From Candidatus Alcyoniella australis (GTDB lineage: Bacteria > Lernaellota > Lernaellaia > JAVCCG01 > Alcyoniellaceae), in assembly GCA_030765605.1 (NCBI GenBank), contig JAVCCG010000004.1, positions 1 to 48,692 on the forward strand: a DNA stretch of 48,692 nucleotides. Direction: 5' to 3'. Below, piece after piece: positions 145 through 39,158 of the stretch. The translations under genes were made by a program, and so were the position numbers. The stretch's first letter is position 1; the number at the start of each line of letters is the position of its first letter. Below the pieces are notes generated by a model, which was given only the letters and a program-made list of their open reading frames with translations, was not told the origin of the DNA and did not search any database.

Positions 145-254
145 AAAGATCGATTACTCGATCTTTACCTACCCCTTCCCAATCTTTCGGCGCGGGGTGG
201 GTCGTAGCATTACGACCAGCGTACTACGCGAGTTTTGCTGCACCTCAAAGGTGC
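145..254 (-). repeat. intergenic hairpin repeat, copy 1 (downstream of the poly-Asp phosphoesterase)
   Basis: Read in the sense of the minus-strand gene, the element begins 11 nt after the stop codon. It opens with the hairpin GCACCT-TTG-AGGTGC (240-254 on plus), continues with AGCAAAACTCGCGTAG and a GC-rich stretch, and closes with a 9-bp palindrome, AAAGATCGA-TTAC-TCGATCTTT (145-166). The same hairpin, the AAAACTCGCG tail or the ATCGATCTTTGTGT end recur at 13244-13534, 32690-32745 and 39088-39158. It lacks the U-tract of a classical terminator. The rest of 45-265 shows nothing recognisable. Confidence 0.75.
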
Positions 255-265
255 CGCTTTACCTT

Positions 266-1528
266 TTACCCACAACAACCGCTGTCGTCGTCGTCGTCAT
301 CGTCGTCGCCCGCTGAATCGTCGTCGTCGTCGTCATCATCATCGTCATCGATGTCGTCGTCGTCGTCGTCATCATCGTCATCGCAGGGCTCGGGCCATTC
401 CATGCCCGGCACTCCGGCGCCGCCCGCGTCGTGCTCGTAGCTGAACTGCTCGATCAGCGTGCCATCGGGACGGAAGGCCGTGTAGTTGACCGCCGCGCCG
501 TCGATTTCGACCTTAACGTAGTTCAGAGTCTTCTCGCTGACCACGGTCCAGTAGTCGCTGCCGTTGCCGTACAGCGGCGCGCCGCCGCCGCCGGTGACAA
601 TGTAGTTCACGTCGTTTACCAGGCCGTGCTCATAGTTGTGATCGTGACCGGCGAAAACCATGTCCACGTCGTAGGCCTCGAACAGCGGGGTCAGGTGCTC
701 CCGAATTGACAGGGAGTCCCAATCATCGCCGTGGTTGGACGCTGAATACGGCGAGATGTGCAGGAAAGGCATGATGTGTTTGCACTGCGGATTGTCCACG
801 GCCTGGGCCAGGGTCTGCTCGATGAACTGGTACTGCGCCGAGCCCGCGGTGTAGGGGCGCGTGACGTCGATGGCGATGAACTGGGTGTTGCCGTAGTGAA
901 AGGCGTACATCGAAGGTTCGGGGGTCGAGGCCGGATGGCTGAAGTACTTGTCGAAGTACGGCCTGCCGCCCCACAGCTCGTGATTGCCCATTACGCCGGC
1001 CATGGCGGTCTGGGCGATCAGCGCCTGCTCCACGTCGAACCACGAGCGCCAATCGCCGGCCGAAAATCCGATCTCCACGTAATCGCCGGTGTTGATCAGG
1101 AAGTCCGGCGATTGCAGCGCGATGGCGTCGACAACCGCCTGATGGTCGTCGGCGTTGGTGCGGTTGTCGCCGAAGGCCACGAACATGAACGGCTCCTCAA
1201 CGCCGACCCCGGTATAGAAGGTATAGATCGGCGAGGAGTTCTCGCCGGAAAGCGCACGATAGTAATATAGGCTGTTGGGCTCCAGGCAGCGCAGGTCCAC
1301 GCTGTGCACGCCGCTTTGGACCTCGCTGGGCAGGACGCTGCCCAATTGCTGGGTCAGGCCGTACTCCACCGAGCCCGAACCCGCGTTGTCCTCCCACTTG
1401 ACGGTCACGCCGCGATCCCAGACGTTGACCAGGAACGGGCCTTTGGAGAACTGCGCGTTGGCGATCCCACTAGTAAGCAGCACCGCGGCGCAGCCTATCG
1501 CCACCAGGGTCAGAGTTCGTATCTTCAT
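266..1528 (-). CDS. secreted purple-acid-phosphatase-like metallophosphoesterase with poly-Asp tail
   Basis: A 420-residue exported calcineurin-like phosphoesterase. Residues 1-25 are a Sec signal ending ANA. Residues 28-108 form a fibronectin-like N-terminal domain typical of purple acid phosphatases. The catalytic domain shows GDNR (120-123), TGD (147-149), GNHE (181-184), H257 and GHDHNYEH (294-301), so all metal-binding motifs look intact. The C-terminus is low complexity: Cys, 10 Asp, Ile, 11 Asp, SAG, 8 Asp, then SGCCG. The ATG at 1528 is preferred over an in-frame ATG at 1555, because GACGAGG precedes it and it puts the signal peptide at the N-terminus. The substrate is unknown; a phosphomonoesterase or phosphodiesterase role outside the cytoplasm is inferred. 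The gene is divergent from the BadF-type ATPase gene. Confidence 0.85.
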   Translation of the reverse strand: MKIRTLTLVAIGCAAVLLTSGIANAQFSKGPFLVNVWDRGVTVKWEDNAGSGSVEYGLTQQLGSVLPSEVQSGVHSVDLRCLEPNSLYYYRALSGENSSPIYTFYTGVGVEEPFMFVAFGDNRTNADDHQAVVDAIALQSPDFLINTGDYVEIGFSAGDWRSWFDVEQALIAQTAMAGVMGNHELWGGRPYFDKYFSHPASTPEPSMYAFHYGNTQFIAIDVTRPYTAGSAQYQFIEQTLAQAVDNPQCKHIMPFLHISPYSASNHGDDWDSLSIREHLTPLFEAYDVDMVFAGHDHNYEHGLVNDVNYIVTGGGGAPLYGNGSDYWTVVSEKTLNYVKVEIDGAAVNYTAFRPDGTLIEQFSYEHDAGGAGVPGMEWPEPCDDDDDDDDDDIDDDDDDDDDDDSAGDDDDDDDDSGCCG

Positions 1529-1672
1529 CGTTTGCCTCGTCATTGCGTGCAACATGGTAGAGGATGCTAACAGAAAATTAGCTCCCAGATAACATCGGAA
1601 GCCTACAAAAATGACGTTTCTCGTATCGACGGTCCAACGTGGGACGGACGCAGCGCGCCGCTCGCCGGCTGC

Positions 1673-1701
1673 TTGAGCCCTGCATGTAAAACGTCTATGC
1701 T
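1673..1701 (+). promoter_or_regulatory. putative sigma70-type promoter
   Basis: TTGAGC (1673-1678) and TATGCT (1696-1701) are separated by 17 nt. Transcription would begin near 1708, about 25 nt before the ATG at 1733. This argues against the upstream TTG at 1673 being the start of the next gene, since that TTG would be part of the -35 box. Confidence 0.45.
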
Positions 1702-1732
1702 CTATCCTCGATCAACACACGAGATTGCCACA

Positions 1733-2527
1733 ATGACTGAACTTTACGCAGGAATCGACATCGGGTCCCTGACCACCAAGTGTACGCTGATCGACCCCGA
1801 GGGTCGGATCGTGGCCTGGGATCTGCGCCCCACCGCGCCCAACGCTTCCAAGGCGGCTCAGGGCACGTTGACCGCCGTTTGTGCCGCGGCAAAGATCGAG
1901 CAGGGCGACCTGTCGCTGTTGGTGAGCACGGGCTACGGCCGCAACCGGTTGCCGTTCGAGGCCAAGTCGATCACCGAGATCACCTGCCACGCCAAGGGCG
2001 CGGCGCGACTGGTTTCCGGCGCACGAACCGTGATCGACATCGGCGGCCAGGACTCCAAAGCGATCCGCATCGACGAGCTTGGCAAGGTCGGCGACTTCGT
2101 GATGAACGACAAGTGCGCCGCGGGCACCGGCCGATTCCTGGAAGTAATGGCGCGCACCCTGGAAGTCGACCTGGATCAGGTCGGCCCGCTGGCCCTGGAG
2201 GCCCGCAGCCGGATCGCGGTGAGTTCGATGTGTACGGTATTCGCCGAGAGCGAGGTCGTGGGCCTGATCGCCAACGGCCATCCCACACCTGATATCCTGG
2301 CCGGGATCTGCCGTTCGGTGGCCGACCGCGTGGCCGCGATGGCCGCACGGATCGGCGTGACGCCCGCGGTGGTGATGACCGGCGGAGTGGCGCGCAATGC
2401 GGGCGTAGTGCTGGCCCTGAGCGAGAAGCTCGGGCACGAGGTCACGCCCGCGCCCCACGCCCAACTCGCCGGGGCCTACGGTGCGGCGTTGTTCTCGATG
2501 GAGCGCAATCGATCGATCAACGATTGA
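1733..2527 (+). CDS. BadF/BadG/BcrA/HgdC-type ATPase (2-hydroxyacyl-CoA dehydratase activator family)
   Basis: A 264-residue ASKHA-fold ATPase. Visible motifs are the first phosphate loop IDIGSLTTK (8-16), the second IDIGGQDSK (101-109), NDKCAAGTGR around C128, MCTVFAESE around C167, and TGGVARN near the C-terminus. In the activator family, two cysteines equivalent to C128 and C167 hold one [4Fe-4S] cluster between the subunits of a homodimer and feed ATP-driven electrons to a dehydratase or benzoyl-CoA reductase. Both are kept, so an active iron-sulfur ATPase is likely. No partner dehydratase subunits lie in the window, so the client is unknown. It heads the run into folC, with a 9-nt gap. 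Confidence 0.88.
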   Translation: MTELYAGIDIGSLTTKCTLIDPEGRIVAWDLRPTAPNASKAAQGTLTAVCAAAKIEQGDLSLLVSTGYGRNRLPFEAKSITEITCHAKGAARLVSGARTVIDIGGQDSKAIRIDELGKVGDFVMNDKCAAGTGRFLEVMARTLEVDLDQVGPLALEARSRIAVSSMCTVFAESEVVGLIANGHPTPDILAGICRSVADRVAAMAARIGVTPAVVMTGGVARNAGVVLALSEKLGHEVTPAPHAQLAGAYGAALFSMERNRSIND

Positions 2528-2536
2528 GGGAGAGCG

Positions 2537-3840
<1,304 letters not shown>

Positions 3841-3844
<4 letters not shown>

Positions 3845-6105
3845 GACTTTGCCGCGCCCTGCTGCTCGGGCTGCTGATCGCCTGCCTGCTCGCCGGGGCT
3901 GCGGCTGCTCAGGACGAATCGGACCAGGAGCAGCCAGACCAGGAACAGGTCGACCAGGAGCAGTCCGGGGAAACGCCGGGGTTCGAGCAGCTCGTGGCGC
4001 GCGGACGCGAGGAACAGAAGGTCGTGGTCTCGGCCGAGATGATCACCGTCGATTCGGAAAACGAGCTGTACAAGGCGTTTGGCAACGTGGTGCTGATCTA
4101 CGGCGAGCAAATCCTGATGGCCAAGATGGTCAGCCTCGATATGTGCAACAGCGAGGCCGTGGCCGTGGGCGACGTGCGGCTGATCGACCCCGAGGGCGAG
4201 ATCACAGCCGAACGCGTGGCCCTGAACTTCGAGCGCGAGACCGGCTATCTGTTCTCGGGCCGCTTTATCATCCGCAAGGAGCAGGCGACCTACTTCATCG
4301 AGGGCGAACAGATCGAGAAGATCGGGCCGGACCGCTACCTGATCCACAACGGCAGCTACACCACCTGCCAGTGCGAGGAGGACGACGAACTTCTCGACTG
4401 GAAGATCGAGGGCAAAGACCTCGACGTGACCATCGACGGCTACGCCCGGATCCATGACGCGCGCTTCAGCTATTTGGACCTGCCGCTGTTCTGGACGCCC
4501 TACGCCGTGGTGCCGGTCAAAGTCACGCGCCAAAGCGGGTTCCTGCCGCCGTACTTGGGTTTCTCGGACCGCAGCGGATACTTCCTCGAGCTGCCGTTCT
4601 TCTGGGCGATCAGCCAGCGGGCCGACGCCACGTTCTACAGCGAGTACCTCGAGCGTCGCGGGTTCAAGCCCGGGATCGAGTACCGCTGGGCGCTGAGTGA
4701 AGGCGGCAAGGGGCAGGTCAACCTCGACTTCATCGACGACCGCGAGTACGGCGCGCGACGCTGGGCCATGCGCGGCGAGCAGACCCAGCGCATCACCCGC
4801 ACCTTCAACGTGCGCAGCAAGTTGCTCGAGGTCTCGGACGATCAATACATCGGCGACTTCAGCCGCGACTTCAGCGGGCTGCGCTACGACCGCTACCTGC
4901 GCAGCAACATGATCGTCGACAAGCGTTGGGACCGGTTCAGCCTTAACACCGATTTCCAGCACTACAACGACCTGACGCGCGCCGACGATTCCTCGACCTG
5001 GCAGCGCCTGCCGCAGGTGAGCTTCAGCGCGATCAACCGCCCGATCTGGAAGCTGCCGATGCTCTTACGCGCGGGCACCGTGGCGACCAACTTCTACCGC
5101 AATAAGATCAGCGACGAGGAAAAGCTGCTCGACCCGCAAAAGAAACTTTTTCTCAGCGGCGGACGGCGCATCGAGGCTGTGCCCGAGATGCTGCTGCCGC
5201 TGCACTACCGCAACTGGTTCCAGTTCGTGCCGACCATCGCCTGGCGCGAGACGCTCTACCACGTGCCCGAGCGCGAGGAGCTGTGGCTGACCCGCGAGCT
5301 GTGGCGCACGCGCACCGACCTAACCACCACTCTGGAGCGGGTCTACGATATGGACCTGCAGGTGATGCCCGCGCTCAAGCATTCGATCGAGCCGCTGCTG
5401 GCCTACGAATTTCAGCCCGAGCCCGCAGACCAGGACGAGCTGCCGGTGTTCGACGGCAGCGACCGACTGAGCAAACGCAACGCGATAATCTACGGCGTGA
5501 CCAACCGGCTGTGGGCCAGGCTCTATCTAAGTAAGCGCAAGACCTTCGCCAGCCTGCGGCTGATCCAGCTCCGGGTATGGCAGGAATACGATATCGAGGA
5601 GACCCGGCGCGAACTACTCGAGACCGTCGAGGACCAGGAGCCCGACGAGCGCCGCCCGTTATCGGACGTGATGAGCCAGCTCGAGGTCAAGTTCTCGCTG
5701 GGTCGCTTCTTAAACAAGATCTACATTCTGCAGGACCTGAACTACGGCGTGTACGACCAATGGCTGACGCGCTACAACGTGCTCGGCGGATTCGAGACCG
5801 TGGGGCGCTCGGGCGCGGTGCTCGAATACCGCTACCGCCGCGGTCCCGACGGCAAGGCCTCGATCGAATCGCTGGGCGGCAACACCCGGCTCAACCTCGC
5901 CGAATCGTTCTCGCTGACCTACGCCACCAAATACAACTTCCTCGACGATCAGTTCATCGAGAACATCTACGGCGTGGAGTTCCACTCGCTGCAACGCTGC
6001 TGGAATTTCACCCTGCTGATCGAGGACAAGTCCAATCCGCGCGAGCTGGTCACGCGTTTCATCATTGACTTGACCGGCCTGATCGAGTTCAAAGGATCGT
6101 GGTAG
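3841..6105 (+). CDS. lptD: LPS-assembly outer membrane protein LptD
   Basis: A 754-residue outer membrane barrel that inserts lipopolysaccharide into the outer leaflet. Residues 1-23 are a signal peptide, followed by an acidic Asp/Glu/Gln linker (to about 45). The OstA/LptA-like periplasmic beta-jellyroll runs from about 55 to 200, with FGNVVLIYG and the conserved YTTCQCEED. The barrel begins with the family stretch around FWTPYAVVPVK and GFLPPYLGFSDRSGYF and runs to the C-terminus. The ATG at 3841 overlaps the folC stop and starts directly with the signal peptide; the frame is open upstream but lies inside folC. LptE and the other Lpt genes are not in the window. The gene shows that this is a diderm cell with LPS or a similar glycolipid. 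Confidence 0.93.
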
Positions 6106-6113
6106 GTCCAAAG

Positions 6114-7193
6114 ATGGGAATGAACAAGCACAAGTTGATCGTCAGCGACTTCCACCTCGCCGCCGGGCCCAAGGGTCCGGACGGTCGTCGCAACCGGCTC
6201 GAGGATTTCTTTCGCGACGAGCAGTTCATCGAGTTCCTCGACTTTTTCCGATCCAACCAGTACGCCGAGCGCGAGGTCGAGCTGGTGTTCAACGGCGACT
6301 TTCTCAACGAGCTGTTGGTGCCCTATCGCGGCTCGCACCCGGTGCGGATCACCGAGGAGATGTCGCTGGAGAAGGTGCAGACGATCATCGCGGGCCACCC
6401 CGAGGTGTTCGACGCGTTGCAGCGCTTCGCCGCCAGTCCCGGCGGGCGGATCGTGATCATCCCGGGCAACCACGACCAGGCGCTGCTCTGGCCCAAGGTG
6501 CAGAAGCTGCTCAAGGAGCGGATCAACCCCTACATCCGCTTCTTTGTCGACGCCTACAACTTCGACGGCGTGTACGTCACCCACGGCCACGCTTACGAGT
6601 TCATCAACCACTCCAACCCCTACAGCTTCTGGATCCTCGACCACGAGGGGCACGAGGTGCTGCGGCTGAGCTGGGGCAATTATTTCATTCTCGAGCTGAT
6701 CAGCGAGCTCAAACTCAAACGGCCTTACATCGACAAGGTCAAGCCGTTCCGCGCTTACTTGCGCTGGGCGTTCTACAACGACGTGCGCTTTTTCTTCGAG
6801 GCCAACGCCCGGCTGGTGGCCTTCTACCTGCGCAACCGCTTCAGCCACGACCCGCTGCGCCGCCGCGAGTTCAAGATCGGCATCAACCGCTACAACGAGG
6901 CGCTGACCCACACCAACCTCGCGGCCGAGGCCGAGAAGATTTTGATCAACACCAACTACCATACGGTGGTGATGGGACACAGTCACAAGGCCGACTACGT
7001 TAACTTCGGCGAGGTCGGCCAGTACTTCAACAGCGGGACCTGGCTGGATCTGATCAGCCTCGACATCTCCGAACTGGGACGCCACAGCAATCTAACCTTC
7101 GTGCAGATCGATTACGTCGAGGGCCAGCCGGTCTCGCGGCTGCGCTCCTGGCGCGGCTCGCACAAGCTCGTCGAGGAGACGATCCTGCTTTGA
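6114..7193 (+). CDS. calcineurin-like metallophosphoesterase next to lptD (LpxH-like superfamily)
   Basis: A cytosolic phosphoesterase of 359 residues. Motifs in order: SDFHLAAGP near residue 10, NGDFLNE near 60, PGNHDQ near 120, THGHAYEF near 155 and MGHSHKAD near 290. These give a complete two-metal site. It is longer than classical LpxH (about 240 residues) because a helical insert lies between the last two motifs. Location directly after lptD suggests a job in lipid A or envelope metabolism, for example hydrolysis of UDP-2,3-diacylglucosamine, but this is inference only. Starts at GTG 6099, ATG 6114 or ATG 6120 are all possible; the ribosome site (AAAGGA, 6091-6096) does not decide. Confidence 0.8.
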   Translation: MGMNKHKLIVSDFHLAAGPKGPDGRRNRLEDFFRDEQFIEFLDFFRSNQYAEREVELVFNGDFLNELLVPYRGSHPVRITEEMSLEKVQTIIAGHPEVFDALQRFAASPGGRIVIIPGNHDQALLWPKVQKLLKERINPYIRFFVDAYNFDGVYVTHGHAYEFINHSNPYSFWILDHEGHEVLRLSWGNYFILELISELKLKRPYIDKVKPFRAYLRWAFYNDVRFFFEANARLVAFYLRNRFSHDPLRRREFKIGINRYNEALTHTNLAAEAEKILINTNYHTVVMGHSHKADYVNFGEVGQYFNSGTWLDLISLDISELGRHSNLTFVQIDYVEGQPVSRLRSWRGSHKLVEETILL

Positions 7194-7226
7194 GATAACC
7201 GCGCACAATCGCAGGCGGAGGAACCG

Positions 7227-7484
7227 ATGCAAGACCGTACGCTGAAACTTTTACTGCTGCTGATCGCCGTGGGGCTAATGCTCAACGCGGCAGCCTCCTT
7301 CTACCAGGCGCTGGTGCCCGAGGCCCTGGCCGACTCGACCTCACGGATCTACATCGAAGGCGGCAAGCTGGAAGTGACGGTCCAAGGCGGATACGGCGGG
7401 CTGCCGATCAGCATTGAAAAGCCGGTGCGCATCGAGGGCAGCGGCTCGTCGTTCAATCCGCTGTACGTGGAAGTCAATAAGTAG
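7227..7484 (+). CDS. small exported or membrane-anchored protein of unknown function
   Basis: An 85-residue protein with a GGAGGAA ribosome site close ahead. Residues 6-28 are hydrophobic (signal anchor or cleavable signal); the rest is a short beta-rich, Gly-containing extracytoplasmic part with IYIEGGKLEV and VRIEGSGSS. I recognise no family. It lies 5 nt ahead of the next gene, so the two are likely cotranscribed. Confidence 0.6.
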   Translation: MQDRTLKLLLLLIAVGLMLNAAASFYQALVPEALADSTSRIYIEGGKLEVTVQGGYGGLPISIEKPVRIEGSGSSFNPLYVEVNK

Positions 7485-7489
7485 CACCG

Positions 7490-8227: not shown

Positions 8228-8398
8228 AACGCGCGCCGTAATGCCCCGACCCACGTCACAACCGGAGAGGTTGGAGGGGAATACTGTTTGTTTAACAAGA
8301 TTGGTAAAGGCTCGCGGGATAATCCTGAGAGCGGCGCGTTGACGAATGCGGATGAATCTTTCAGGCTATGGACAACAATTTTGGGGGAGTTTAATCCG

Positions 8399-9340: not shown

Positions 9341-9354
9341 GAGGACACGGCACG

Positions 9355-11154: not shown

Positions 11155-11156
11155 CC

Positions 11157-13201: not shown

Positions 13202-13243
13202 CAGGATCGGGGGGAGATCAAGTAAAGATCGAAAATTTGCCCG

Positions 13244-13534
13244 GCACCTCAAAGCCACCCGGCGCCGGGCGGGCCGTTGGATTAGGACCGGCGAACTACG
13301 CGAGCCATGCGGGCACCTCATAAAGTGCTGGGCGCGGGGTGGATCGTGGCATTACTACCAAAGTTCTGCGCGAGTTTTGCTGTGGCTCAAAACTGCCCGT
13401 CGCGGAGTGGCCCGTTGTATTAGGACCGGCGAACTACACAAGCCATGCGGGCACCTCATAAAGTGCTGGGCGCGGGGTGGATCGTGGCATTACTACCAAA
13501 GTTCTGCGCGAGTTTTGCTGTGGCTCAAAGCCAC
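13244..13534 (-). repeat. tandem array of 69-bp hairpin units, copy 2 of the dispersed element
   Basis: Five hairpin positions start at 13244, 13313, 13382, 13451 and 13520, exactly 69 bp apart. Alternate units are nearly identical, giving a 138-bp super-period (13272-13391 against 13410-13529). The unit nearest the deacetylase stop forms a perfect hairpin, GTGGCT-CAA-AGCCAC (13520-13534), directly touching that stop codon. Other positions are GCACCT-CATA-AAGTGC variants or mosaics whose two stem halves come from different types. This array fills the only gene-free gap above 300 bp (13202-13534). I see no other gene or signal in it, apart from AAAGATCGAAAATTT near 13226, which recalls the palindrome end of copy 1. 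Confidence 0.9.
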
Positions 13535-14680
13535 CTAGCCGATGCCGTTCATGGGGAAGGTTTTTTCCAGGTGGAACTCGATCGTGCGTTCCAGCTCGGC
13601 CACGGCGCGCTCCTTTTCCGCTCCGGAGGTATATACGCGCATCTCGCGCAGGCCGCCCGAGCGTTCGCCCGATCCGAGGAACACACCGCCGACCAGTCCG
13701 GCGTAATCGTCCACCGGCTCGGCGTCGCACATCACTAAAAACGCCAGGGCCCAGCCGCGCGCGGTCTTGAGCGGATCGTATCCGCCGCCGCCGAACAGCA
13801 GGACCGGCTTTTGCAGCTTGCGAATGCGGGCCAGCATGTCGGCCACTGAGTTGTTGGTCATCCGCAGGTGGGTCAGCGGATCGTTGTTCAGCACGTCCAT
13901 GCCGATCTCGATTACGAGCACGTCCGGGTCGAAGCGCTCGACCAGCGGGTAGACCACGGTGTTGAAGGCGTGGACGAACATGCCGTCGTCCGTGCCCGCG
14001 GGCAGTGGCAGGTTGACGTTGAACCCGCGGCCCAGTCCGGCGCCGATCTCGTTTTCAAACCCGCACCAGGGGTAGAGCGTATGGCCCGATTCGTGGGTCG
14101 AGATCGTCAGTACTCGCGGGTCGGCGTAGAACGCGTCCTGGGTGCCGTTGCCGTGATGGGCGTCGAGATCGACGTTGGCCACGCGCAGTCCGCCGTCGGC
14201 CAGTTGCATGCAGGCCAGCACAACGTCGTTGACGTAGCAGAACCCCTCGGCGTGGTCGACCCCGGCGTGATGAAACCCGCCGATGGGGTTGAACACCAGA
14301 TCCTTGCTTCCCCGGGCCAGCAGTTGCGCGCCGGCCAGCGAGGCTCCGGCCGAGAGCGCGGCCAGGTCGTAGAGCCCCTTGAACGCCGGGCAGTCGTCGC
14401 CGCCGATGCCGTATTGCAGCATCTCGATCGAGAAGTCGTAGCGGCCCTTGCTGATGCGTTGCATCGCCTCGAGGTACGCTCCGTGGTGGAAGCGCTCCAT
14501 CTGCTCGAAGCTCGCCGGCTCGGGACTCAGCCGCTCGAGCCACGGCTGGTCGAGCACTCCCTCCGAGGCGAGAATCTCCATCAGCAACGCCGCACGCTCC
14601 GGGCGGAACGGATGATTCGGCGGATATGTGAGGTGCTCGTGTCCACTGTAGCTGAACAGGGCTGTTCGTGGTTGCTGCAT
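13535..14680 (-). CDS. histone-deacetylase-superfamily (AcuC/HDAC-like) amidohydrolase
   Basis: A 381-residue cytosolic zinc hydrolase that would remove acetyl or similar acyl groups from lysine, polyamines or small molecules. Seen: the catalytic His pair in GGFHHAG (H137, H138), metal ligands in DLDAHHGNG (D173, H175), the third ligand in the region GMDVLNNDPL and the glycine-rich GGGGYDP holding the catalytic Tyr. Length and order match class I-like bacterial deacetylases. The ATG at 14680 is preferred, with AGGTGG 8 nt upstream; a GTG at 14692 is possible. Bacterial relatives deacetylate acetyl-CoA synthetase or acetylpolyamines; no neighbour here points to a substrate. Confidence 0.9.
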   Translation of the reverse strand: MQQPRTALFSYSGHEHLTYPPNHPFRPERAALLMEILASEGVLDQPWLERLSPEPASFEQMERFHHGAYLEAMQRISKGRYDFSIEMLQYGIGGDDCPAFKGLYDLAALSAGASLAGAQLLARGSKDLVFNPIGGFHHAGVDHAEGFCYVNDVVLACMQLADGGLRVANVDLDAHHGNGTQDAFYADPRVLTISTHESGHTLYPWCGFENEIGAGLGRGFNVNLPLPAGTDDGMFVHAFNTVVYPLVERFDPDVLVIEIGMDVLNNDPLTHLRMTNNSVADMLARIRKLQKPVLLFGGGGYDPLKTARGWALAFLVMCDAEPVDDYAGLVGGVFLGSGERSGGLREMRVYTSGAEKERAVAELERTIEFHLEKTFPMNGIG

Positions 14681-14692
14681 CAGAGATACCAC

Positions 14693-16971: not shown

Positions 16972-16977
16972 CGGCGG

Positions 16978-25554: not shown

Positions 25555-25597
25555 CCCTGTGCGGAGCCTCGTTATTCAAAGGAAATCGTGCGCTGTA

Positions 25598-27046: not shown

Positions 27047-27056
27047 GGAGATCCCG

Positions 27057-27428: not shown

Positions 27429-27476
27429 CCCGCTTGCCCTGAAGCGATCCGCCCGACTGCGGCAAGGAGTTGACAG

Positions 27477-28004: not shown

Positions 28005-28043
28005 CGACAATCGTCGAATCCTATTTTACGGAAAGCAACGGCG

Positions 28044-28643: not shown

Positions 28644-28649
28644 CACGGC

Positions 28650-30362: not shown

Positions 30363-30412
30363 TCCTGTCGCCGGTAAACAACCGCATGCCGCGAGGTGAT
30401 ACTATTTTGCGG

Positions 30413-31669: not shown

Positions 31670-31734
31670 CTAAGACTGGAGCGAACATATCGTGTCCCCC
31701 GGTGTCTGATATCAATCAAGGAGCGAGGGCAACG

Positions 31735-32646
31735 GTGAGTAAACCGATTCCGCGCAGAAAGTTCATCGAACGGGCGAGCGAGATCGGCCTGCTGTTGTTC
31801 GCGCCGATGGGGCTGATCGAGTCGCCGCCGGGCCAGGCTCCCAAGCCCCCTGCTCCGCTGACCATCGCCGCTTCCACAACGAGCCACAGGTCGAGCTACT
31901 CGTTTGTCGGATCGAGCGACCCGGGGTTTGCCGAACGATTCGTGGGCGAGCGTAAGACGTTCAACATCGAGTGGATGAAGATCCTCGGCGTGGCGGACAT
32001 CGACATCTCGTTCGACCGCGGCTCGGCCGAGCACCGCTACAACACCAGCTTCGTGCTCAAGCTGCGCAACATCTACAGCGCGCTGTCGCGCTACGGCGAG
32101 ATGAAGATCCAAAGCGAGTTGATCAGCGGCACCCAGCGCGGCAAGTACCGGCTGATGCCGTTGCGCACGATGGTCGAGCACACGTTCAAGGGCGATCTCT
32201 ACGTGCGCCAATACAAGTTTGACTACGACAAGCACAGCTACAATTTGCGCAAAACCAAGAACGGCGTGGAGACCCGCAACCGCGACTACACCTTCCGGCC
32301 CAACCGGGTCTACGACGATCCGTCCAGCGCCTTTTGGAATTTGCGCGCCGGGATCTACGGCGACCCAACCCCGGGCAGACATTTCAAAATTCGCTCCCTG
32401 CGCTTTGCCGGACTCAAGCGTTACGAGGGCGACGTGCTCAAAACCGACCAGCTCGAGCCGGTCTCGTTGCTGCTCACAGCCTACCCGCAGGTGCACACCG
32501 TGCTTTCGGTCGACCTCTCCAAGCAATTGTTCCTGGGCAAGCCCGGCGGCAAGGTCTACATCGGCTTTGACAAGAAGATGCAGCCGCACTTCGGCCTGAT
32601 CCCGAACATCCCCTCGGTCGGCGACGTGTTTGCGCTAAAGAAGTAG
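31735..32646 (+). CDS. DUF3108-like exported protein with a Tat-like leader
   Basis: A 303-residue protein. The N-terminus PRRKFIERASEIGLLLFAP resembles a twin-arginine leader. The mature part has the DUF3108 layout: VGERKTFNIEWMKILGV near 70, repeated beta strands with LKLRNIYSALSRYGEMKIQS, a middle RTMVEHTF block and YDDPSSAFWNLRA. DUF3108 proteins are envelope beta-sandwiches of unknown biochemical role. The GTG at 31735 has AAGGAG 11 nt upstream; a longer reading from 31666 overlaps the previous gene and lacks a leader. Family assignment is by eye and moderate. Confidence 0.68.
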   Translation: MSKPIPRRKFIERASEIGLLLFAPMGLIESPPGQAPKPPAPLTIAASTTSHRSSYSFVGSSDPGFAERFVGERKTFNIEWMKILGVADIDISFDRGSAEHRYNTSFVLKLRNIYSALSRYGEMKIQSELISGTQRGKYRLMPLRTMVEHTFKGDLYVRQYKFDYDKHSYNLRKTKNGVETRNRDYTFRPNRVYDDPSSAFWNLRAGIYGDPTPGRHFKIRSLRFAGLKRYEGDVLKTDQLEPVSLLLTAYPQVHTVLSVDLSKQLFLGKPGGKVYIGFDKKMQPHFGLIPNIPSVGDVFALKK

Positions 32647-32689
32647 AGAAACGCACATCACCACGGTAGTAATACAGCGTGCCTCTGCG

Positions 32690-32745
32690 CGACGCGGGGC
32701 AATGATCAGCGTACTACGCGTGCCATGCGGGCACCTCAAAGGTGC
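32690..32745 (-). repeat. intergenic hairpin repeat, copy 3 (between convergent genes)
   Basis: The hairpin GCACCT-CAA-AGGTGC (32731-32745) is identical to the one in copy 1. In the sense of the transketolase gene it lies 32 nt after the stop and is followed by CCGCATGGCACGCGTAGTACG, the tail seen in alternate units of the 13.3-kb array (quoted part: CCGCATGGC, CGTAGTACG). It lies between convergent genes. Confidence 0.75.
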
Positions 32746-32777
32746 GATAGATCAATCTCTTGATCTTGTACCCGCCC

Positions 32778-34778
32778 TCACCCCAGGTGGGTGCGGATCC
32801 GTTGGGCTACCTGCTCGGGGGTAAAGCCGAACTTCTCGGCGATCACCTTGTCCGGTGCGGAAGCGCCGAAGCGATCGACGCTGATGATCAGCCCGCGATC
32901 TCCGGCCAGCTTGTACCAGGGTTCGGCGCTGCCCAGCTCGATGCAGACGCGCGGCAGGTCCGGCGGCAGCACGTCGTTGAGGTACTCCGGCGGTTGGGCC
33001 GCAAAGCGTTCGAGCCAGGGGACCGAGACGATGCGCAGGCCCGTGCCCGCCTCGCCCAGGGCCTTGCGCGCGGCGAAGGCCAACGCGACCTCGGAGCCCG
33101 TGGCCAACAGCACGGCGCGCGGCGCTGCCAAAGCCTCGGAGACCACGTATCCGCCGCGGGCCAAAAGTTCGATACTCATCGGCACGCGCCCCTCGAGTTG
33201 CGCCAGTTTCTGGCGACTGAGAATCAGCGCGGTCGGTCCGTCTCGCCGTGCCAGGGCCGCGGTCCAGCACGCCGCGGTCTCGGCCGCGTCGGCCGGGCGC
33301 AGCACCGCCAGGTTGGGAATCAGCCGCAACGCGGCCACGTGCTCTACCGGCTGATGGGTCGGGCCGTCCTCGCCGACCATCAGGCTGTCGTGGCTGAACA
33401 GGAAGATCGTGCGTATGCCCATCAGCGCCGCGAGCCTGATCGACGGACGCATGTAGTCGGAGAAAACCAGGAACGTGGCGGTGTAGGGGATCGCGCTGCC
33501 CGACAGCGCCAGGCCGTTGGCAATGGCGCCCATCGCATGCTCGCGGACGCCGAAGTGGATATTGCGGCCCAGCATGTTATCGCGAGACAGCGATTGTTCG
33601 GCCGCCACAGTGCTCTTGTTCGACGGACCCAGGTCGGCCGAGCCGCCGATCAAGGCCGGCACCGCGGCCGAGGCTGCGGCCAAAGCCTTGCCCGACAGTC
33701 CGCGGGTGGCCGCATCGCCATCCGGGCAGGCCGCCGTCAGCCGCTGGAACAGATCCTCGGGCAGCTCGCAGCCCATCAGCGCGTCCCAGCGCTGCGCGGA
33801 CTGCGGATGCTCGGCAAGCCAGGCGGCCAGCGCGCGCTTGTGCTTGCGACGCGTTCGTTCGCCGCGACGTGCGGCCTTGGCAAACGGCTCACGCGCCTGG
33901 TCGGGCACCAGGAACGTCGGCTGCTCGGGCCAACCCAGACAGCGCTTGGTGCACGCCGACTCTTCCGAGCCCAGGGGCGCTCCGTGGCAGACCTCGCAGT
34001 CGCACTTGCCCGGGCTGCCCGCGCCGATATGAGTCCGGGCGATCACCAGGCACGGCGCGCCCTGGTGCTTAATCGCACGCTTGATCGTGCGGGCCAACGC
34101 CTCGCGGTCGTGGCCGTCGCAGCGCAGCACCTTCCAGCCGTAGGCAGCGAAACGCTTGCCCACGTCCTCGCTGTGGGACAGATCGAGATTGCCCTCGATA
34201 GTGATCTGATTGGCATCGTAGAGCGCCACCAGGTTGTCCAGGCCCCAATGGCCGGCCAACGAGGCGCTCTCAGCTGATACACCCTCCATCAGGTCGCCAT
34301 CGGAGACTATGGTGAAAACGCGGTAGCCGATGGGATCGAAGGCGCCGTGGTTGAACTCGGCGGCCGAGCGCTTGCCGGCCAGGGCCATGCCCACGGCCAT
34401 GCCCAGGCCCTGACCCAGCGGCCCGGTGGTGCATTCGACTCCCGGCAGGTGCAGCTCGGGATGTCCCGGAGTCTGCGAGCCCCACTGGCGGAACTGCTTG
34501 ATGTCTTCCAGCGAGATTTTAAAACCGCTGAGGTGCAGCAGGGCGTAGAGCAGCATCGAGGCGTGTCCGGCCGAGAGCACGAAGCGATCGCGGTCGACCC
34601 ATTGCGGGTCCGAGGGCGCAAAGCGCAGAAAGCGCGTCCAGAGCACATAGGCCATGTCGGCCGCGCCCAGCGGCATGCCCGGGTGACCCGAGCCGGCTTT
34701 CTCGATCGCGTCGACCGCGAGCATCTTGATTGTGTTTACCGCAAGCTGATCCGTCTCCTGGTCGATCCTGAGAACCAT
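32778..34778 (-). CDS. tkt: transketolase
   Basis: A 666-residue thiamine-diphosphate enzyme of the pentose phosphate pathway that moves two-carbon units between sugar phosphates. Seen: KAGSGHPGMPLGAADM near 28, GPLGQGLGMAVG near 115, the TPP motif starting GDGDLMEG near 155, and the C-terminal half with GEDGPTHQPVEH near 465 and GSEVALA near 565. The ATG at 34778 has GGGGGG 6 nt upstream. Odd point: where the family has a Gly-rich loop before HGAPLG, this protein reads GKCDCEVCHGAPLG, and two more Cys follow (C259, C261, C264, C276, C280). It faces the CPBP gene across a divergent gap of 140 nt. Confidence 0.93.
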   Translation of the reverse strand: MVLRIDQETDQLAVNTIKMLAVDAIEKAGSGHPGMPLGAADMAYVLWTRFLRFAPSDPQWVDRDRFVLSAGHASMLLYALLHLSGFKISLEDIKQFRQWGSQTPGHPELHLPGVECTTGPLGQGLGMAVGMALAGKRSAAEFNHGAFDPIGYRVFTIVSDGDLMEGVSAESASLAGHWGLDNLVALYDANQITIEGNLDLSHSEDVGKRFAAYGWKVLRCDGHDREALARTIKRAIKHQGAPCLVIARTHIGAGSPGKCDCEVCHGAPLGSEESACTKRCLGWPEQPTFLVPDQAREPFAKAARRGERTRRKHKRALAAWLAEHPQSAQRWDALMGCELPEDLFQRLTAACPDGDAATRGLSGKALAAASAAVPALIGGSADLGPSNKSTVAAEQSLSRDNMLGRNIHFGVREHAMGAIANGLALSGSAIPYTATFLVFSDYMRPSIRLAALMGIRTIFLFSHDSLMVGEDGPTHQPVEHVAALRLIPNLAVLRPADAAETAACWTAALARRDGPTALILSRQKLAQLEGRVPMSIELLARGGYVVSEALAAPRAVLLATGSEVALAFAARKALGEAGTGLRIVSVPWLERFAAQPPEYLNDVLPPDLPRVCIELGSAEPWYKLAGDRGLIISVDRFGASAPDKVIAEKFGFTPEQVAQRIRTHLG

Positions 34779-34918
34779 TGCACCCCCCGTATTTCGGCCG
34801 GTTCGCGCGCCGTCGTGCAAAGCAGCGGCCCGCACTTTCGCGACTGGCCGCTTGATGACAACTCAGCTATGATTTAGCGTGATTTTTCATTAGCCAGAAC
34901 AGAGGCATCTTACAACAA

Positions 34919-35638
34919 ATGAAACGCACAATCGAGATCGTCCGTAAAATGGATCGACGACTGGCCATCGTGCTGATTTACGCGGCTTTGGCCATGACGC
35001 CGTTCGCCTATCAGTGCAGTCGTTCGTTCTTTTTAGAACATTGGGGCGAGGCGTTCGCACCGCGCGCGGCCCTGTGGTACGCCGCGTTGTGGCACCACAG
35101 TTGGGTGCTGCTGCTGTTCGGCCTGATCCCGCTGGCGATCGTCAAGCTCGGATTTAAGCTGCGCCTGGCCGACTTCGGCGTACGCCTGGGCGATTGGAAG
35201 TTCGGCCTGGCGTTCCTGGCGATCTGGGTCGTGCTGATGCTGCCGGGGACCTACGTCAACAGCATGCAGCCCGAGTTCACGGCCGAGTACCCGCTGGTGA
35301 ACATGCACGAGGCGGGCATCGGACTGTGGCTGCTGTGGTCCCTGCTCTACCTGGTCTACTACGTGGGCTGGGAATTCTTCTTCCGCGGATTCATCCAGTT
35401 CTCGGTGGAACGCGCGGCCGGGCCGCTGCTGGCGATTATGATGCAGACCCTGCCCAGCACGATCATCCACATCGGCAACAAGCCGTTTGGCGAGACCTTC
35501 TCCGCAGTGATCGCCGGGCTGCTGTTCGGCCTGGTGGCGGTGCGCACGCGCTCGATCCTCTGGCCGCTGCTGGCCCATTGGTATGTCGGCATGTCCAACG
35601 ATTGGTTCTGCAACATGGCAGGCCCGCATTATTCATGA
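34919..35638 (+). CDS. CPBP-family intramembrane metalloprotease (Abi/CAAX-like)
   Basis: A 239-residue inner membrane protein with about six helices. The CPBP catalytic motifs are visible as GWEFFFRGF near residue 150 (ExxxR), the His of PSTIIHIGNKP near 182, and LLAHWYVGMSND near 222. Only one Glu is present where many members have two. Family members cut prenylated proteins, anti-sigma factors or bacteriocin-related peptides; the substrate here is unknown. It is monocistronic by position; a bulged stem-loop follows the stop. Confidence 0.85.
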   Translation: MKRTIEIVRKMDRRLAIVLIYAALAMTPFAYQCSRSFFLEHWGEAFAPRAALWYAALWHHSWVLLLFGLIPLAIVKLGFKLRLADFGVRLGDWKFGLAFLAIWVVLMLPGTYVNSMQPEFTAEYPLVNMHEAGIGLWLLWSLLYLVYYVGWEFFFRGFIQFSVERAAGPLLAIMMQTLPSTIIHIGNKPFGETFSAVIAGLLFGLVAVRTRSILWPLLAHWYVGMSNDWFCNMAGPHYS

Positions 35639-35647
35639 AAATTCTAC

Positions 35648-35669
35648 TGCGGAGCACAATATGCTCGCA
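35648..35669 (+). terminator. possible stem-loop after the CPBP gene
   Basis: TGCG(G)AGCA and TGCTCGCA can pair in 8 bp with one bulged G around the loop CAATA, 9 nt after the stop codon. There is no U-tract, so a factor-independent terminator is doubtful. Confidence 0.3.
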
Positions 35670-35930
35670 ATAACTGTGTCATCCTCGCCGATCCGCCCTC
35701 GACGTACCACAGCGGGTACGCCTGCGGAGTATCGACTCGGCTTCCTCGTTCTTGCGGCATCTTGTACACCTCGCTACGAACCCTCATCAATAATGCGGGC
35801 AAGTAGGCAATCTTAAGGGAGTTTTCCCACGACCGTGTTATGCGGCCGCTTGCCAGCGGTTGCCGCTGGTGATACAACGACCCTCGATTTCCCCAGCTTG
35901 GATTATTGATCCAGGCCAACTGAGAGGTGC
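35670..35930. other. intergenic region upstream of the PP2C gene with two hairpins
   Basis: Noncoding by my reading. A 6-bp hairpin CGTACC-ACAGCG-GGTACG lies at 35703-35720 and a perfect 7-bp hairpin CCAGCGG-TTG-CCGCTGG at 35853-35869, about 60 nt ahead of the PP2C start. The stretch 35690-35815 has the look of a mobile intergenic repeat, but no second copy is in the window. A 102-codon minus-strand frame crosses the region and is judged spurious. Confidence 0.4.
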
Positions 35931-37706
35931 ATGGAGACCTACGGACTAACACACCCGGGAAACCGGCGCGAGACCAACGAAGACGCGGTCTTGATCAACG
36001 ATAACATCGGCCTGTTGGTGCTCGCCGACGGGATGGGCGGTCATGCGGCCGGCGACGTGGCCAGCCAAATCGCCGTGGAAGTGATCAATGACGCGCTCGA
36101 GGCTGCGTTGGCCGACGTCGGCCCGAGTGAGGACGAGTCGTACTACGTCGGCTCGCTGCGCGCCGCGATCAGGCGCGCCAATGCGGCGATCCACGAACAG
36201 GGGCAGTCCGAGGCCTCCACTCGCGGCATGGGCTCCACAGCCGTAGCCGTTCTGATTGTCGGCCTCCGGCTATATGTGGCGCACGTGGGCGACAGCCGCT
36301 GCTACCTGTACGACGACGGCAAATTTACGCAGATCACACGCGATCACTCCAAGGTCCAGGAACTGGTCGACGCCGGGCAACTCACCGCGGACGAGGCGCG
36401 CAACCACGCGCTGTCCAACCTGCTGACGCGCTCCCTGGGTCCCTACGCCGAGGTCGAGGTCGACGTTACGACCCACGATTGGAACGAGACGCGCCTGCTG
36501 CTGCTGTGCTCCGATGGCCTGAACTCCGAGCTGAGCGACGCCCAGATCCGCCAGTCGCTGGAGACCTACGCCGACATCAAGGACAAATGCCGCGCGCTGG
36601 TGGGCCAGGCGCTCGAGGGTCGTGCCAACGACAACGTTTCGCTGCTGATCGGCCAAGGCGAGCGCTTCGCTCCCCAGGCCAAGCAGGCACCGGAAAAACT
36701 GGTCGACCTCACGCCGGACCACGAGGTCAACGACGAATCGCGCACCGGCACTCCCGCGCCCGCCACCAACCGCACTCCAGCGCCCGCCGCTGGTCCGCAG
36801 GACGAGCCCGAGCCGGAGTTCACGCCGCGGCCGGGCAGCCGTCGCGGCCTGCAACTACCCAAGACGCTGCTGGGCTCCGCACGCCGTCCGACCAGCCGCC
36901 TGCAGATCGCGCTGATCGCCGGGGCGATCGTGCTGGTGCTGATCGCGTTACTGTTGATCCCGATCTTCTGTGACGACTCCGGCTCGCCCGCGACCGGCGC
37001 CGACCAACAGGGCCAAACCACGAGCGACGCGCAGGCCGGTCCGACGCATTACTATCTGCTGTTCAAGGACGACGCGCTGAGCATGGCCCAAGGCAGCTCG
37101 CCGGAAAGCGCCGCTGCAATCGAGGGCAGCGACGTGCTGGTCTGGGACAACATCAGCCTGGTGATCCGCGGTCGCGGCTTCACTCCCTCCCAGGGTGGGC
37201 TGTTCTTCAAATCGCTGGACACGATGCCTCAGCTGACGCAGGAAGCGCTGCAAATCTACTCCAGCGTGATCGCTCACGCGTTGAGCCTCAAGACGGCCGA
37301 CGGCCTGGTGCTGGCCTTCACCACCCTGATTGCGGTCAAGCAAAATCCGCTGCTGACCCGCATCGATTCCCAGGCCGTACACCGCCTCGAACTCGAAACC
37401 TTTTCCAAGTCGCTGCCCGTAATCGACGAGGTGCTCAAATCCGAGTACGAGATCGGCAGCGCCTGGATCAGACGCACCGACCGAATCTTTGAGCTGGCCG
37501 ACCACGCCTTCGAACTCGAGGGCGAGCGCATGGGCCAGTATCGCTCACGCAAGGGCGACTACCATTACTACCAGGGGCTATACTACGCCTCGCAAAACAT
37601 CAACGACCGCGCGTTGCTCAAATTTCAAGACGCGCGCCAATTAGGCACGAGCTTCCCCGACGTGGGCGCAAAAATCGAGGAACTTGAGAGCCAGAGCTCC
37701 AACTAA
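35931..37706 (+). CDS. transmembrane PP2C-type Ser/Thr phosphatase with extracytoplasmic domain
   Basis: A 591-residue protein. Residues 1-240 are a PPM/PP2C catalytic domain with RRETNEDA, LADGMGGH near 34, HVGDSRCYLY near 110, LCSDGLNSELSD near 190 and NDNVSLLIG near 225, so all metal-binding acids are kept. A Pro-rich linker (240-320) leads to one membrane helix (about 324-346). The remaining 245 residues are outside the cytoplasm: a beta-rich part and a helical TPR-like part (YYQGLYYASQNINDRALLKF). Such proteins dephosphorylate Hanks-type kinase targets; no kinase is present nearby. The DEAD-box gene begins 1 nt after its stop. Confidence 0.88.
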   Translation: METYGLTHPGNRRETNEDAVLINDNIGLLVLADGMGGHAAGDVASQIAVEVINDALEAALADVGPSEDESYYVGSLRAAIRRANAAIHEQGQSEASTRGMGSTAVAVLIVGLRLYVAHVGDSRCYLYDDGKFTQITRDHSKVQELVDAGQLTADEARNHALSNLLTRSLGPYAEVEVDVTTHDWNETRLLLLCSDGLNSELSDAQIRQSLETYADIKDKCRALVGQALEGRANDNVSLLIGQGERFAPQAKQAPEKLVDLTPDHEVNDESRTGTPAPATNRTPAPAAGPQDEPEPEFTPRPGSRRGLQLPKTLLGSARRPTSRLQIALIAGAIVLVLIALLLIPIFCDDSGSPATGADQQGQTTSDAQAGPTHYYLLFKDDALSMAQGSSPESAAAIEGSDVLVWDNISLVIRGRGFTPSQGGLFFKSLDTMPQLTQEALQIYSSVIAHALSLKTADGLVLAFTTLIAVKQNPLLTRIDSQAVHRLELETFSKSLPVIDEVLKSEYEIGSAWIRRTDRIFELADHAFELEGERMGQYRSRKGDYHYYQGLYYASQNINDRALLKFQDARQLGTSFPDVGAKIEELESQSSN

Positions 37707-37707
37707 C

Positions 37708-39087
37708 ATGCAAAATGACCAAGGTCCTATTATCAACGACAATCCCGAAGAACAAGAAAATGACGACAGCCAGGAGCAACGAAGCTTCGAGAGCTTCGAC
37801 TTCCATCCGCTGGTGCAAAAAAGCATCGCCGCGGTAGGGTTCACCGAGCCTACGCCGGTACAGCAAAAATCGTTCGACGCGCTGCTGCGCGGCCGCGATC
37901 TGATGGCCCAGTCCCAGACCGGGACCGGCAAAACCGCCACGTTCCTGCTGACGATCCTCGACCGCGTCTGCCGCACCAAGCGCCCGGCCGACGGCTCGCC
38001 GCGCGCGCTGATTCTCGCACCGACCCGCGAGCTGGCGCTGCAGATCGGCAAGGAATGCCGCCTCTACCGCGGCAAGATCGACGCGCGCATCGCCGTGCTC
38101 TACGGCGGCGAGCGCTACCTCAAACAGGAACAGGAACTGGAGCGCGGCTCGGACATCGTAATCGGCACGCCCGGCCGCCTGATGGACTTCAAGTATCAGG
38201 GCAAGGTCAAGTTCGACAAACTCCAAATCGTGGTGATCGACGAGGCCGACCGGCTGCTGGACATGGGCTTCTGGCCCGACATTAAAAAGATCCTGCTGAT
38301 GACGCCGCCGGTGGATCAACGCCAGACGTTGGTCTTCTCCGCGACCCTGGGCGACGAGGCGCGCGGCATCGCCTATTTGCACACCAACGACCCGCTGGTG
38401 GTCGAGGTCCGGCCGGAAAACATCACTGCCGACGGCATCCAGGAAGTGCTTTACCACGTAGGCTCGCACGAGAAGTTCAGCCTGCTGCTCGGAGTGCTGC
38501 GCCGCAGCCAAGCCAAGCGGGTACTGATCTTCACCAACATGAAGAACATGGCCGTGCTCGTTTCGCGCAAACTCGAGGGCCACGGTTTCCGAGCCCACGC
38601 GATCATCGGCGACATGCGCCAATCCAAACGGATGGCCGCGCTCGAAGATTTCCGCGCGGGCAAGATCCAAATCCTCGTGGCCTCGGACGTGGCCAGCCGT
38701 GGGCTGCATGTGGAGGACATCGGGCTGATCGTCAACTACGACCTGCCCCAGGACCCGGAGAACTACGTGCACCGCATCGGTCGCACCGCGCGCATGGAGC
38801 ACACCGGCGTGGCCGTCTCCCTGGCCTGCGAGCGCTTCATCTACTCGCTGGAGGCCATCGAGAAGTACATCGACCGCCCCATCCCGGCACAGGTGCCCGA
38901 GGAGGAGCTGTTCGAGACCGACCGCTTCTCGCACATGACCGTCGAACGAGCACCGCGACGCGGCGACGGGAATCGCTCGCGCTCGGGCGGCGGCGGCGAC
39001 CGACGCGGCGGACGCTCGGGACCGGGCGGACGCTCTGGACCGGGCGGCCGCCCACGCTCGTCAGGTCAAGGCCGACGACGCAGGTAG
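37708..39087 (+). CDS. DEAD-box ATP-dependent RNA helicase (RhlB/RhlE type)
   Basis: A 459-residue helicase. Motifs: Q motif GFTEPTPVQQKS near 45, I SQTGTGKT near 70, Ia PTRELALQ, Ib TPGRLMD, II DEAD near 180, III SAT near 212, V SDVASRGLHVED near 330 and VI HRIGRTAR near 355. The C-terminal 45 residues are Arg/Gly/Ser-rich (GGGGDRRGG, RSGPGG repeats), a likely RNA-binding tail. The N-terminal 30 residues are acidic. It would unwind RNA in decay or ribosome assembly. The start at 37708 lies one base after the PP2C stop, so coupling is likely. A repeat hairpin touches its stop codon. Confidence 0.92.
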   Translation: MQNDQGPIINDNPEEQENDDSQEQRSFESFDFHPLVQKSIAAVGFTEPTPVQQKSFDALLRGRDLMAQSQTGTGKTATFLLTILDRVCRTKRPADGSPRALILAPTRELALQIGKECRLYRGKIDARIAVLYGGERYLKQEQELERGSDIVIGTPGRLMDFKYQGKVKFDKLQIVVIDEADRLLDMGFWPDIKKILLMTPPVDQRQTLVFSATLGDEARGIAYLHTNDPLVVEVRPENITADGIQEVLYHVGSHEKFSLLLGVLRRSQAKRVLIFTNMKNMAVLVSRKLEGHGFRAHAIIGDMRQSKRMAALEDFRAGKIQILVASDVASRGLHVEDIGLIVNYDLPQDPENYVHRIGRTARMEHTGVAVSLACERFIYSLEAIEKYIDRPIPAQVPEEELFETDRFSHMTVERAPRRGDGNRSRSGGGGDRRGGRSGPGGRSGPGGRPRSSGQGRRRR

Positions 39088-39158
39088 GCAGCTTTGAGCT
39101 GCACTAAAACTCGCGAGCGGACCATATTCTTGGTTTAACGATAAATCGATCTTTGTGT
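39088..39158 (+). repeat. intergenic hairpin repeat, copy 4 (after the DEAD-box gene)
   Basis: The hairpin GCAGCT-TTG-AGCTGC (39088-39102) starts at the base after the stop codon. It is followed by ACTAAAACTCGCG and, further on, by AATCGATCTTTGTGT, matching both ends of copy 1 in the opposite orientation. Relative to copies 1 and 3 one base pair of the stem is exchanged in a compensatory way. The 3' end lies 14 nt from the opposing porB stop. Confidence 0.75.

What the first reader, a model, noticed from the sequence alone, without database searches (positions are those of the whole stretch)
145..39158. Dispersed post-stop hairpin family with compensatory stem changes
Four loci (145-254, 13244-13534, 32690-32745, 39088-39158) share one design. 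Read in the gene sense, a 6-bp stem around a TTG loop lies 0-32 nt after a stop codon, followed by either AAAACTCGCG or CCGCATGGC and then CGTAGT(A/T)CGC. Stems differ while pairing is kept: GCACCT/AGGTGC, GCAGCT/AGCTGC, GTGGCT/AGCCAC. Three of four sites lie between convergent genes; the fourth lies at the end of the first gene. The constant orientation relative to the gene and the covariation suggest an RNA-level role such as bidirectional termination or mRNA end protection rather than a random repeat.
Basis: partly seen in the sequence, partly recalled or inferred. Interest (0 to 1): 0.78.

Follow-up and report, generated by a model that had tools for sequence, protein, structure and literature searches.

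The report
Lineage-specific REP-like repeat at gene ends
The four hairpins belong to a previously undescribed family of at least 150 short structured DNA repeats, found so far only in this bacterium, that sit at the ends of genes and appear to have inserted there, sometimes supplying the gene's stop codon; this resembles the REP/BIME repeats of other bacteria more than it resembles a new transcription terminator.

Summary
The hairpin opens a ~64-nt unit: hairpin 1, linker CAAAACTCGCG, hairpin 2, CCGCG. The genome holds at least 156 units, in single copies, head-to-tail arrays of up to 8, and inverted pairs. I found none in 59 other genomes by exact pattern, and one marginal covariance-model hit in six same-class genomes.

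Hairpin-1 covariation is strong. Convergent spacers are enriched (48 of 84 occupied spacers, against 16 of 132 in an unbiased sample). Units are almost absent from coding sequence. Constant orientation fails: between co-directional genes, 41 units are sense and 36 antisense.

The clearest new result: the hairpin-1 end lies within 6 nt of a stop codon in 50 of 96 cases, the other end in 1 of 43. In 21 genes the element itself supplies all or part of the stop. NadE ends PIT-RHL*, with RHL* read from the hairpin, where a same-class homologue ends PITNRFRDA*.

This points to a REP/BIME-like mosaic repeat that entered gene 3' ends and was tolerated there. There is no U-tract, so intrinsic termination is unsupported. 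The GTAG tag and flanking RAYT of true REPs were tested and not met.

The parts
192..255 (-). Complete unit, the best-scoring copy in the genome: hairpin 1 (240-254), linker AGCAAAACTCGCGTAGTACGC, hairpin 2 GGTCGTA-ATGC-TACGACC, CCACCCCGC
   Evidence: nhmmer 67.7 bits; covariance model R1 86.7 bits; fold -21.6 kcal/mol with both hairpins
145..166 (-). Module K, AAAGATCGAGTAATCGATCTTT then GTGTGTAGGCTCGCC, a second dispersed palindrome about 25 nt beyond the distal end of the unit
   Evidence: 48 genome matches to CGATCTTTGTGTGTAGG with up to 2 mismatches, 1 in the reversed control; spacing 22-28 nt from the unit in 24 of 31 K copies in the fetched DNA; alignment A2
13244..13260 (-). Partial hybrid hairpin 1 (GGTGGCTTTGAGGTGCC) at the distal side of the array
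   Evidence: read directly from the sequence
13267..13322 (-). Unit, CCGCATGGCTCGCG linker type
   Evidence: nhmmer 36.6 bits
13334..13397 (-). Unit, AAAACTCGCG linker type, hairpin 1 degenerate (GGCAGTTTTGAGCCAC)
   Evidence: nhmmer 53.0 bits
13402..13459 (-). Unit, CCGCATGGC linker type
   Evidence: nhmmer 34.9 bits
13472..13535 (-). Unit whose outer G completes the TAG stop codon of the histone-deacetylase-family gene (13535-14692, minus strand)
   Evidence: nhmmer 53.5 bits; junction ggcta|GGTGGC; Pfam Hist_deacetyl E 3.1e-80
32693..32745 (-). Unit with hairpin 1 at 32731-32745, 31-32 nt beyond the stop of the transketolase gene (32778-34835, minus strand)
   Evidence: nhmmer 34.4 bits; Pfam transketolase domains
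39087..39142 (+). Unit of the AGCGGACC variant; its first G completes the TAG stop of the DEAD-box helicase gene (37684-39087, plus strand)
   Evidence: nhmmer 31.2 bits; junction gcaggta|GGCAGC; Pfam DEAD E 1.9e-46
39146..39157 (+). Probable remnant of module K (right arm CGATCTTTGTGT)
   Evidence: read directly from the sequence

Best explanation
The hairpins belong to a lineage-specific REP/BIME-like mosaic repeat family. Shown: the unit is ~64 nt with two hairpins, and it is multiplied head-to-tail and in inverted pairs joined at their distal ends. It combines with at least two other repeat modules (K and R). Its hairpin-1 end is a sharp boundary that joins many different neighbours: stop codons, the 3' end of a tRNA gene, K, R, or another unit. 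Several junctions lie inside ancestral coding sequence, so the element supplies part or all of the stop codon. Inferred: copies spread by insertion or recombination, and those in gene 3' ends and convergent spacers persisted because they do least harm there. RAYT-like activity in trans, with local duplication, is possible but not shown. Once transcribed, the hairpins would act as REP hairpins do: resisting 3'-5' exonucleases and, where they lie within about 15 nt of a stop, slowing the terminating ribosome.
For: Copy number and specificity: at least 156 units by covariance model R1 (only the best candidates were scored), none in five of six same-class genomes and one marginal hit (E 5.5e-4) in the sixth; exact pattern only in this genome among 60; no Rfam family in six repeat-bearing sources. 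Structure: helix 1 is 96.8% paired; covariation score for the whole structure 0.268 against 0.137 shuffled; sliding the partners destroys it. Mosaic organisation: 119 clusters of 1-8 units; directly adjacent full units are head-to-tail 45 times, distal-to-distal 31, hairpin-to-hairpin 1; modules K and R. Boundary at gene ends: hairpin-1 end to stop at most 6 nt in 50 of 96, distal end 1 of 43, Fisher p = 8.6e-10; noticed in set 1 and repeated in a second, separately fetched set. Insertion: stops inside the hairpin loop (7 genes) or split across the junction (14 genes). NadE ends PIT-RHL* against PITNRFRDA* in the clearest homologue; CcsB ends LHAYA* with TAG joined directly to GGCGGC, while all nine homologous copies carry two more codons. 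Location: convergent spacers 48 of 84 against 16 of 132.
Against: No empty site or target duplication could be shown, because no close relative is held. No mobilising enzyme is linked to the repeat: the only RAYT (NF047646, 146 bits) has no unit next to it, and its 600-nt flanks match nothing repeated in the fetched DNA apart from weak hits beyond 330 nt downstream. GTAG before hairpin 2 is present in under half of the aligned units. The excess of TAG stops (21 of 40 at 0-15 nt against 131 of 465, p = 0.002) is not fully explained by insertion plus tolerance. Gene calls come from my own simple gene finder. Only two genes were compared with homologues.
Confidence: 0.76

Rival explanations
1. 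The hairpin is a selected RNA element at mRNA 3' ends (transcript end, exonuclease block, or control of translation termination), placed next to stop codons because it works there.
For: Covariation of helix 1. Hairpin-1 ends pile up at -2 to +3 nt from stops, and none of 38 lies within 30 nt of a start. In helix 2, G-U outnumbers A-C 41 to 18, and 16 to 2 in clean copies, which hints at folding of the sense strand. E. coli REPs within 15 nt of stops stall ribosomes (PMC12306157, citing Liang et al. 2015).
Against: Half of the units between co-directional genes are antisense. No U-tract; terminator scans at shuffle level. Gene ends are cut or extended by the element. Only a minority of genes carry it. 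Helix 1 shows no strand bias (8 G-U, 9 A-C).
Confidence: 0.3
2. It is a true REP family mobilised by the RAYT encoded in this genome, with hairpin 2 preceded by GTAG as the recognised REP.
For: A genuine RAYT gene is present. GTAG stands 5' of hairpin 2 in 43 of 104 aligned units and GCAG in 15. Intergenic, convergent, close to ORF 3' ends, as described for REPs (PMC3733652).
Against: RAYT genes were reported as always flanked by two inverted REPs (PMC2817692); here the nearest unit in the fetched stretch is about 4 kb away. Over half of the units lack GTAG. Head-to-tail arrangement is common here (45 adjacent pairs), while HT dimers are reported as negligible in CGTC families (PMC3733652).
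Confidence: 0.2
3. The units are non-autonomous parts of a larger mobile element such as the 154-nt inverted-repeat R module or a lost IS, with unit arrays as its terminal repeats.
For: R has 25-bp terminal inverted repeats, about 13 copies, and joins hairpin-1 ends in several composites.
Against: Only about 13 R copies against at least 156 units; most units lack R. No transposase was identified next to R (not searched systematically).
Confidence: 0.12

Closest known systems
REP sequences and BIMEs of E. coli, Pseudomonas and Stenotrophomonas (GTAG-tagged REPs)
   Same: Short palindromes with compensatory changes, dispersed, intergenic, close to ORF 3' ends, enriched between convergent genes, arranged as mosaics; a RAYT gene exists in the genome
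   Different: Two-hairpin 64-nt unit, frequent head-to-tail arrays, GTAG in under half of the units, no unit beside the RAYT gene, and hairpin 1 flush with or contributing to the stop codon
CGTC-tagged REPs and Rickettsia RPE elements (PMC3733652)
   Same: Palindromes near ORF 3' ends, no dedicated transposase found
   Different: Known stems are 8-9 bp with loops of 4-5; here hairpin 1 has a 6-7 bp stem and a 3-nt loop, and no constant CGTC tag
Pneumococcal BOX elements (boxA-boxB(n)-boxC; from general knowledge)
   Same: Modular element with an internal unit repeated a variable number of times; structured if transcribed
   Different: No sequence relation was tested; here unit arrays occur with or without K and often as inverted pairs
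E. coli REPs within 15 nt of stop codons (Liang, Rudd and Deutscher 2015, via PMC12306157)
   Same: Hairpin immediately after the stop codon
   Different: Effect shown only in E. coli; here the hairpin can contain or complete the stop codon itself

Membership tests
GTAG-tagged REP | Palindromic, high-copy, mostly intergenic repeat | tested here: met
   At least 156 units; 4 of 272 hits overlap a predicted CDS by more than 20 nt; helix covariation
GTAG-tagged REP | GTAG/GTGG tetranucleotide at the foot of the palindrome | tested here: not met
   GTAG before hairpin 2 in 43 of 104 aligned units, no constant tag beside hairpin 1
GTAG-tagged REP | Cognate RAYT gene flanked by inverted REPs | tested here: not met
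   One RAYT; nearest unit about 4 kb away; no copies in its flanks
CGTC-tagged REP | CGTC at one end, 8-9 bp stem, 4-5 nt loop | tested here: not met
   Alignment A1 shows no constant CGTC tag; hairpin 1 has a 6-7 bp stem and a 3-nt loop
BIME (mosaic of palindromes and other modules) | Several palindromic repeats and other motifs combined in variable order and orientation | tested here: met
   Unit, K and R modules; head-to-tail and inverted pairs. BIME in the strict sense is built of REPs, which fails above
Intrinsic (bidirectional) terminator | G+C-rich hairpin followed directly by a U-tract | tested here: not met
   Hairpin 1 is followed by CAAAACTCGCG; scan of the window at shuffle level
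Described structured RNA family | Match to an Rfam 15 covariance model | tested here: not met
   Only tRNAs matched in the window and five repeat-bearing loci
MITE / transposon | Terminal inverted repeats and target duplication at an empty site | not testable with these tools
   No close relative is held, so no empty site is available; R has 25-bp TIRs, the single unit does not

The most novel reading that the evidence does not exclude
The hairpin-1 end is integrated, or kept by selection, precisely at functional gene ends (within a nucleotide or two of stop codons, and flush with a tRNA 3' end), so that the element systematically re-builds the stop codon. That would be a repeat specialised for the boundary between coding and untranslated sequence, by targeted insertion or through an effect on translation termination.
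Probability: 0.15. Interest if true: 0.65.

Novelty: new variant of a known kind. Interest (0 to 1): 0.4.

Why it matters
It adds a REP/BIME-like family in a sparsely sampled bacterial class, with an unusual two-hairpin unit and no linked transposase. The chimeric stop codons give base-level evidence that such repeats enter coding 3' ends rather than merely evolving beside them. That offers a way to test whether the familiar nearness of REP hairpins to stop codons comes from insertion bias, tolerance, or selection on translation termination.

Tried and rejected
Searching the public genome collection for the repeat gave one match, L100, where only about 30 nt resemble the unit and the rest is missing; taken as chance. 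Rfam: none. RAYT with flanking copies: not found. Intrinsic terminators: not supported. A fixed target sequence such as TA or CTAG: rejected, because copies not beside stops lack it. Hairpin motif GSCTTNGAGSC in the other class genomes: no consistent excess over the reversed control, while the own genome has 238 against 37. Integron attC and CRISPR were considered because of the arrays and dropped by inspection: no attC core sites, no spacers. Liang et al. 2015 is not held and is cited through PMC12306157.

Full report
WHAT IS THERE. The four sites were read directly and all carry the hairpin. The window is the whole of contig C4 of a 4.29-Mb, 157-contig genome. A BLAST with the first copy found 78 matches, and an iterated profile over fetched flanks showed a ~64-nt unit: hairpin 1 (stem types GCACCT/AGGTGC, GCGGCT/AGCCGC, GCAGCT/AGCTGC, CCGGCT/AGCCGG around a TNG loop), a CAAAACTCGCG or CATGGCWCGCG-type linker, then usually TAGTWCGC, hairpin 2 (GGTCGT-N6-ACGACC) and CCGCG. 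The profile finds 272 hits in the roughly 720 kb fetched and none in the same DNA reversed. The covariance model R1 finds at least 156 in the genome, a lower bound because only the best candidates were scored.

STRUCTURE. In 104 aligned units helix 1 pairs in 96.8% of cells, with A-U/G-C exchanges in 46 units at one pair and G-C/C-G in 39 at another; no shuffle of 500 reaches the observed covariation score and sliding the partners abolishes it. Helix 2 is weaker, 79% paired; some sub-families appear to fold in another register (read from alignment A1, not tested separately). Single-strand folds show both hairpins in complete copies. Covariation shows that a palindrome is kept; it does not by itself tell RNA from DNA. 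The wobble test (G-U against A-C on the sense strand) gives 41 to 18 in helix 2 and 8 to 9 in helix 1: a hint of sense-strand folding for helix 2 only, with related copies counted as if independent.

ORGANISATION. 119 clusters hold 1-8 units. Directly adjacent full units are head-to-tail (45) or joined at their distal ends (31), almost never hairpin to hairpin (1). Module K (AAAGATCG-CGATCTTT, then GTGTGTAGG) lies 22-28 nt beyond the distal end in 24 of the 31 K copies in the fetched DNA and has about 48 genome copies. Module R, 154 nt with 25-bp terminal inverted repeats, has about 13 copies and joins hairpin-1 ends in several composites. Partial 29-nt sub-units (hairpin 1 plus linker) also occur.

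DISTRIBUTION AMONG GENOMES. The exact pattern occurs only in this genome among 60. Among the seven genomes of the class, R1 gives 156 here and one marginal hit (E 5.5e-4) elsewhere. A public-genome scan gave one chance match; that tool may leave out records of this genome itself. No genome of the same genus or family is held, so recent gain or loss cannot be seen.

RELATION TO GENES. Using a codon-usage gene finder written for this work, 48 of 84 occupied spacers are convergent, 28 co-directional and 8 divergent, against 16, 97 and 19 in an unbiased sample (p = 2.5e-12). Only 4 of 272 hits overlap a predicted CDS by more than 20 nt. Between co-directional genes 41 units are sense and 36 antisense, so orientation relative to the gene is not constant. 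The hairpin-1 end is polarised: it lies within 6 nt of a stop codon (or inside the coding end) in 50 of 96 cases, against 1 of 43 for the distal end (p = 8.6e-10). The effect was noticed in the first fetched set and repeated in the second. Facing starts, the hairpin-1 end is never closer than 32 nt. An 8-unit array also begins directly at the 3' end of a tRNA-Leu gene, one of 43 tRNA genes.

EVIDENCE THAT IT ENTERED GENE ENDS. In 7 genes the stop is the TGA inside the hairpin loop; in 14 the stop is split across the junction (TA|G, T|AG or TG|A), two of them in this window (histone-deacetylase-family gene and DEAD-box helicase gene). Two genes were compared with homologues in the class. NadE here ends PIT-RHL*, the last three residues and the stop being read across the junction into hairpin 1, while the homologue in G006 ends PITNRFRDA* and the other ends that could be read are longer and variable. 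CcsB ends LHAYA followed by TAG and GGCGGC; all nine homologous copies carry two further codons. Insertion or recombination into the last codons, followed by survival of harmless cases, explains this directly.

MECHANISM. Shown: multiplication, mosaic joining, a sharp hairpin-1 boundary, contribution to stop codons. Inferred: mobility and tolerance at gene ends. Not shown: any mobilising enzyme. The genome has one true RAYT (NF047646, 146 bits), but no unit flanks it. If transcribed, hairpins at stops should act as REPs do in E. coli, where REPs within 15 nt of the stop stall ribosomes (PMC12306157). Intrinsic termination is unlikely without a U-tract.

COMPARISON. REP families are described as intergenic, between convergent or co-directional ORFs and usually within 20 bp of ORF 3' ends (PMC3733652). 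That matches. The GTAG tag and flanked RAYT, which define the GTAG class (PMC2817692; PMC3733652), were tested and not met, nor was the CGTC class. I therefore file it as working like a REP/BIME without calling it a member.

VERDICT. A real, well-structured, lineage-restricted repeat family; the interpretation as a dedicated terminator is not supported; the gene-end boundary is the most interesting part.

Noticed in passing
G000:C104:243-396 (L185) and about 12 further places: Module R: a 154-nt element with 25-bp terminal inverted repeats (CGACAGCTCGCTCAGCGCGTTCTCA), MITE-like, about 13 copies; no transposase was looked for beside it.
   Followed up: partly
L082:2961-3107 (G000:C119:139660-139806): An array of eight units starts directly at the 3' end of a tRNA-Leu(tag) gene; only one of 43 tRNA genes was seen with such a neighbour.
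   Followed up: partly
G000:C95:13478-13834 (L009): A RAYT (REP-associated tyrosine transposase) gene without flanking copies of this repeat; whether it has its own REP family is unknown.
   Followed up: partly
A2 alignment, sequence after module K: The tail after K reads GGCTCGCC in some copies and GGCGAGC in others, as if this short stretch had been inverted.
   Followed up: no
window 284-392 and 44976-45047: GAC/GTC-rich runs that would encode aspartate-rich stretches near the ends of two predicted genes (266-1555 minus, 44906-47152 plus).
   Followed up: no
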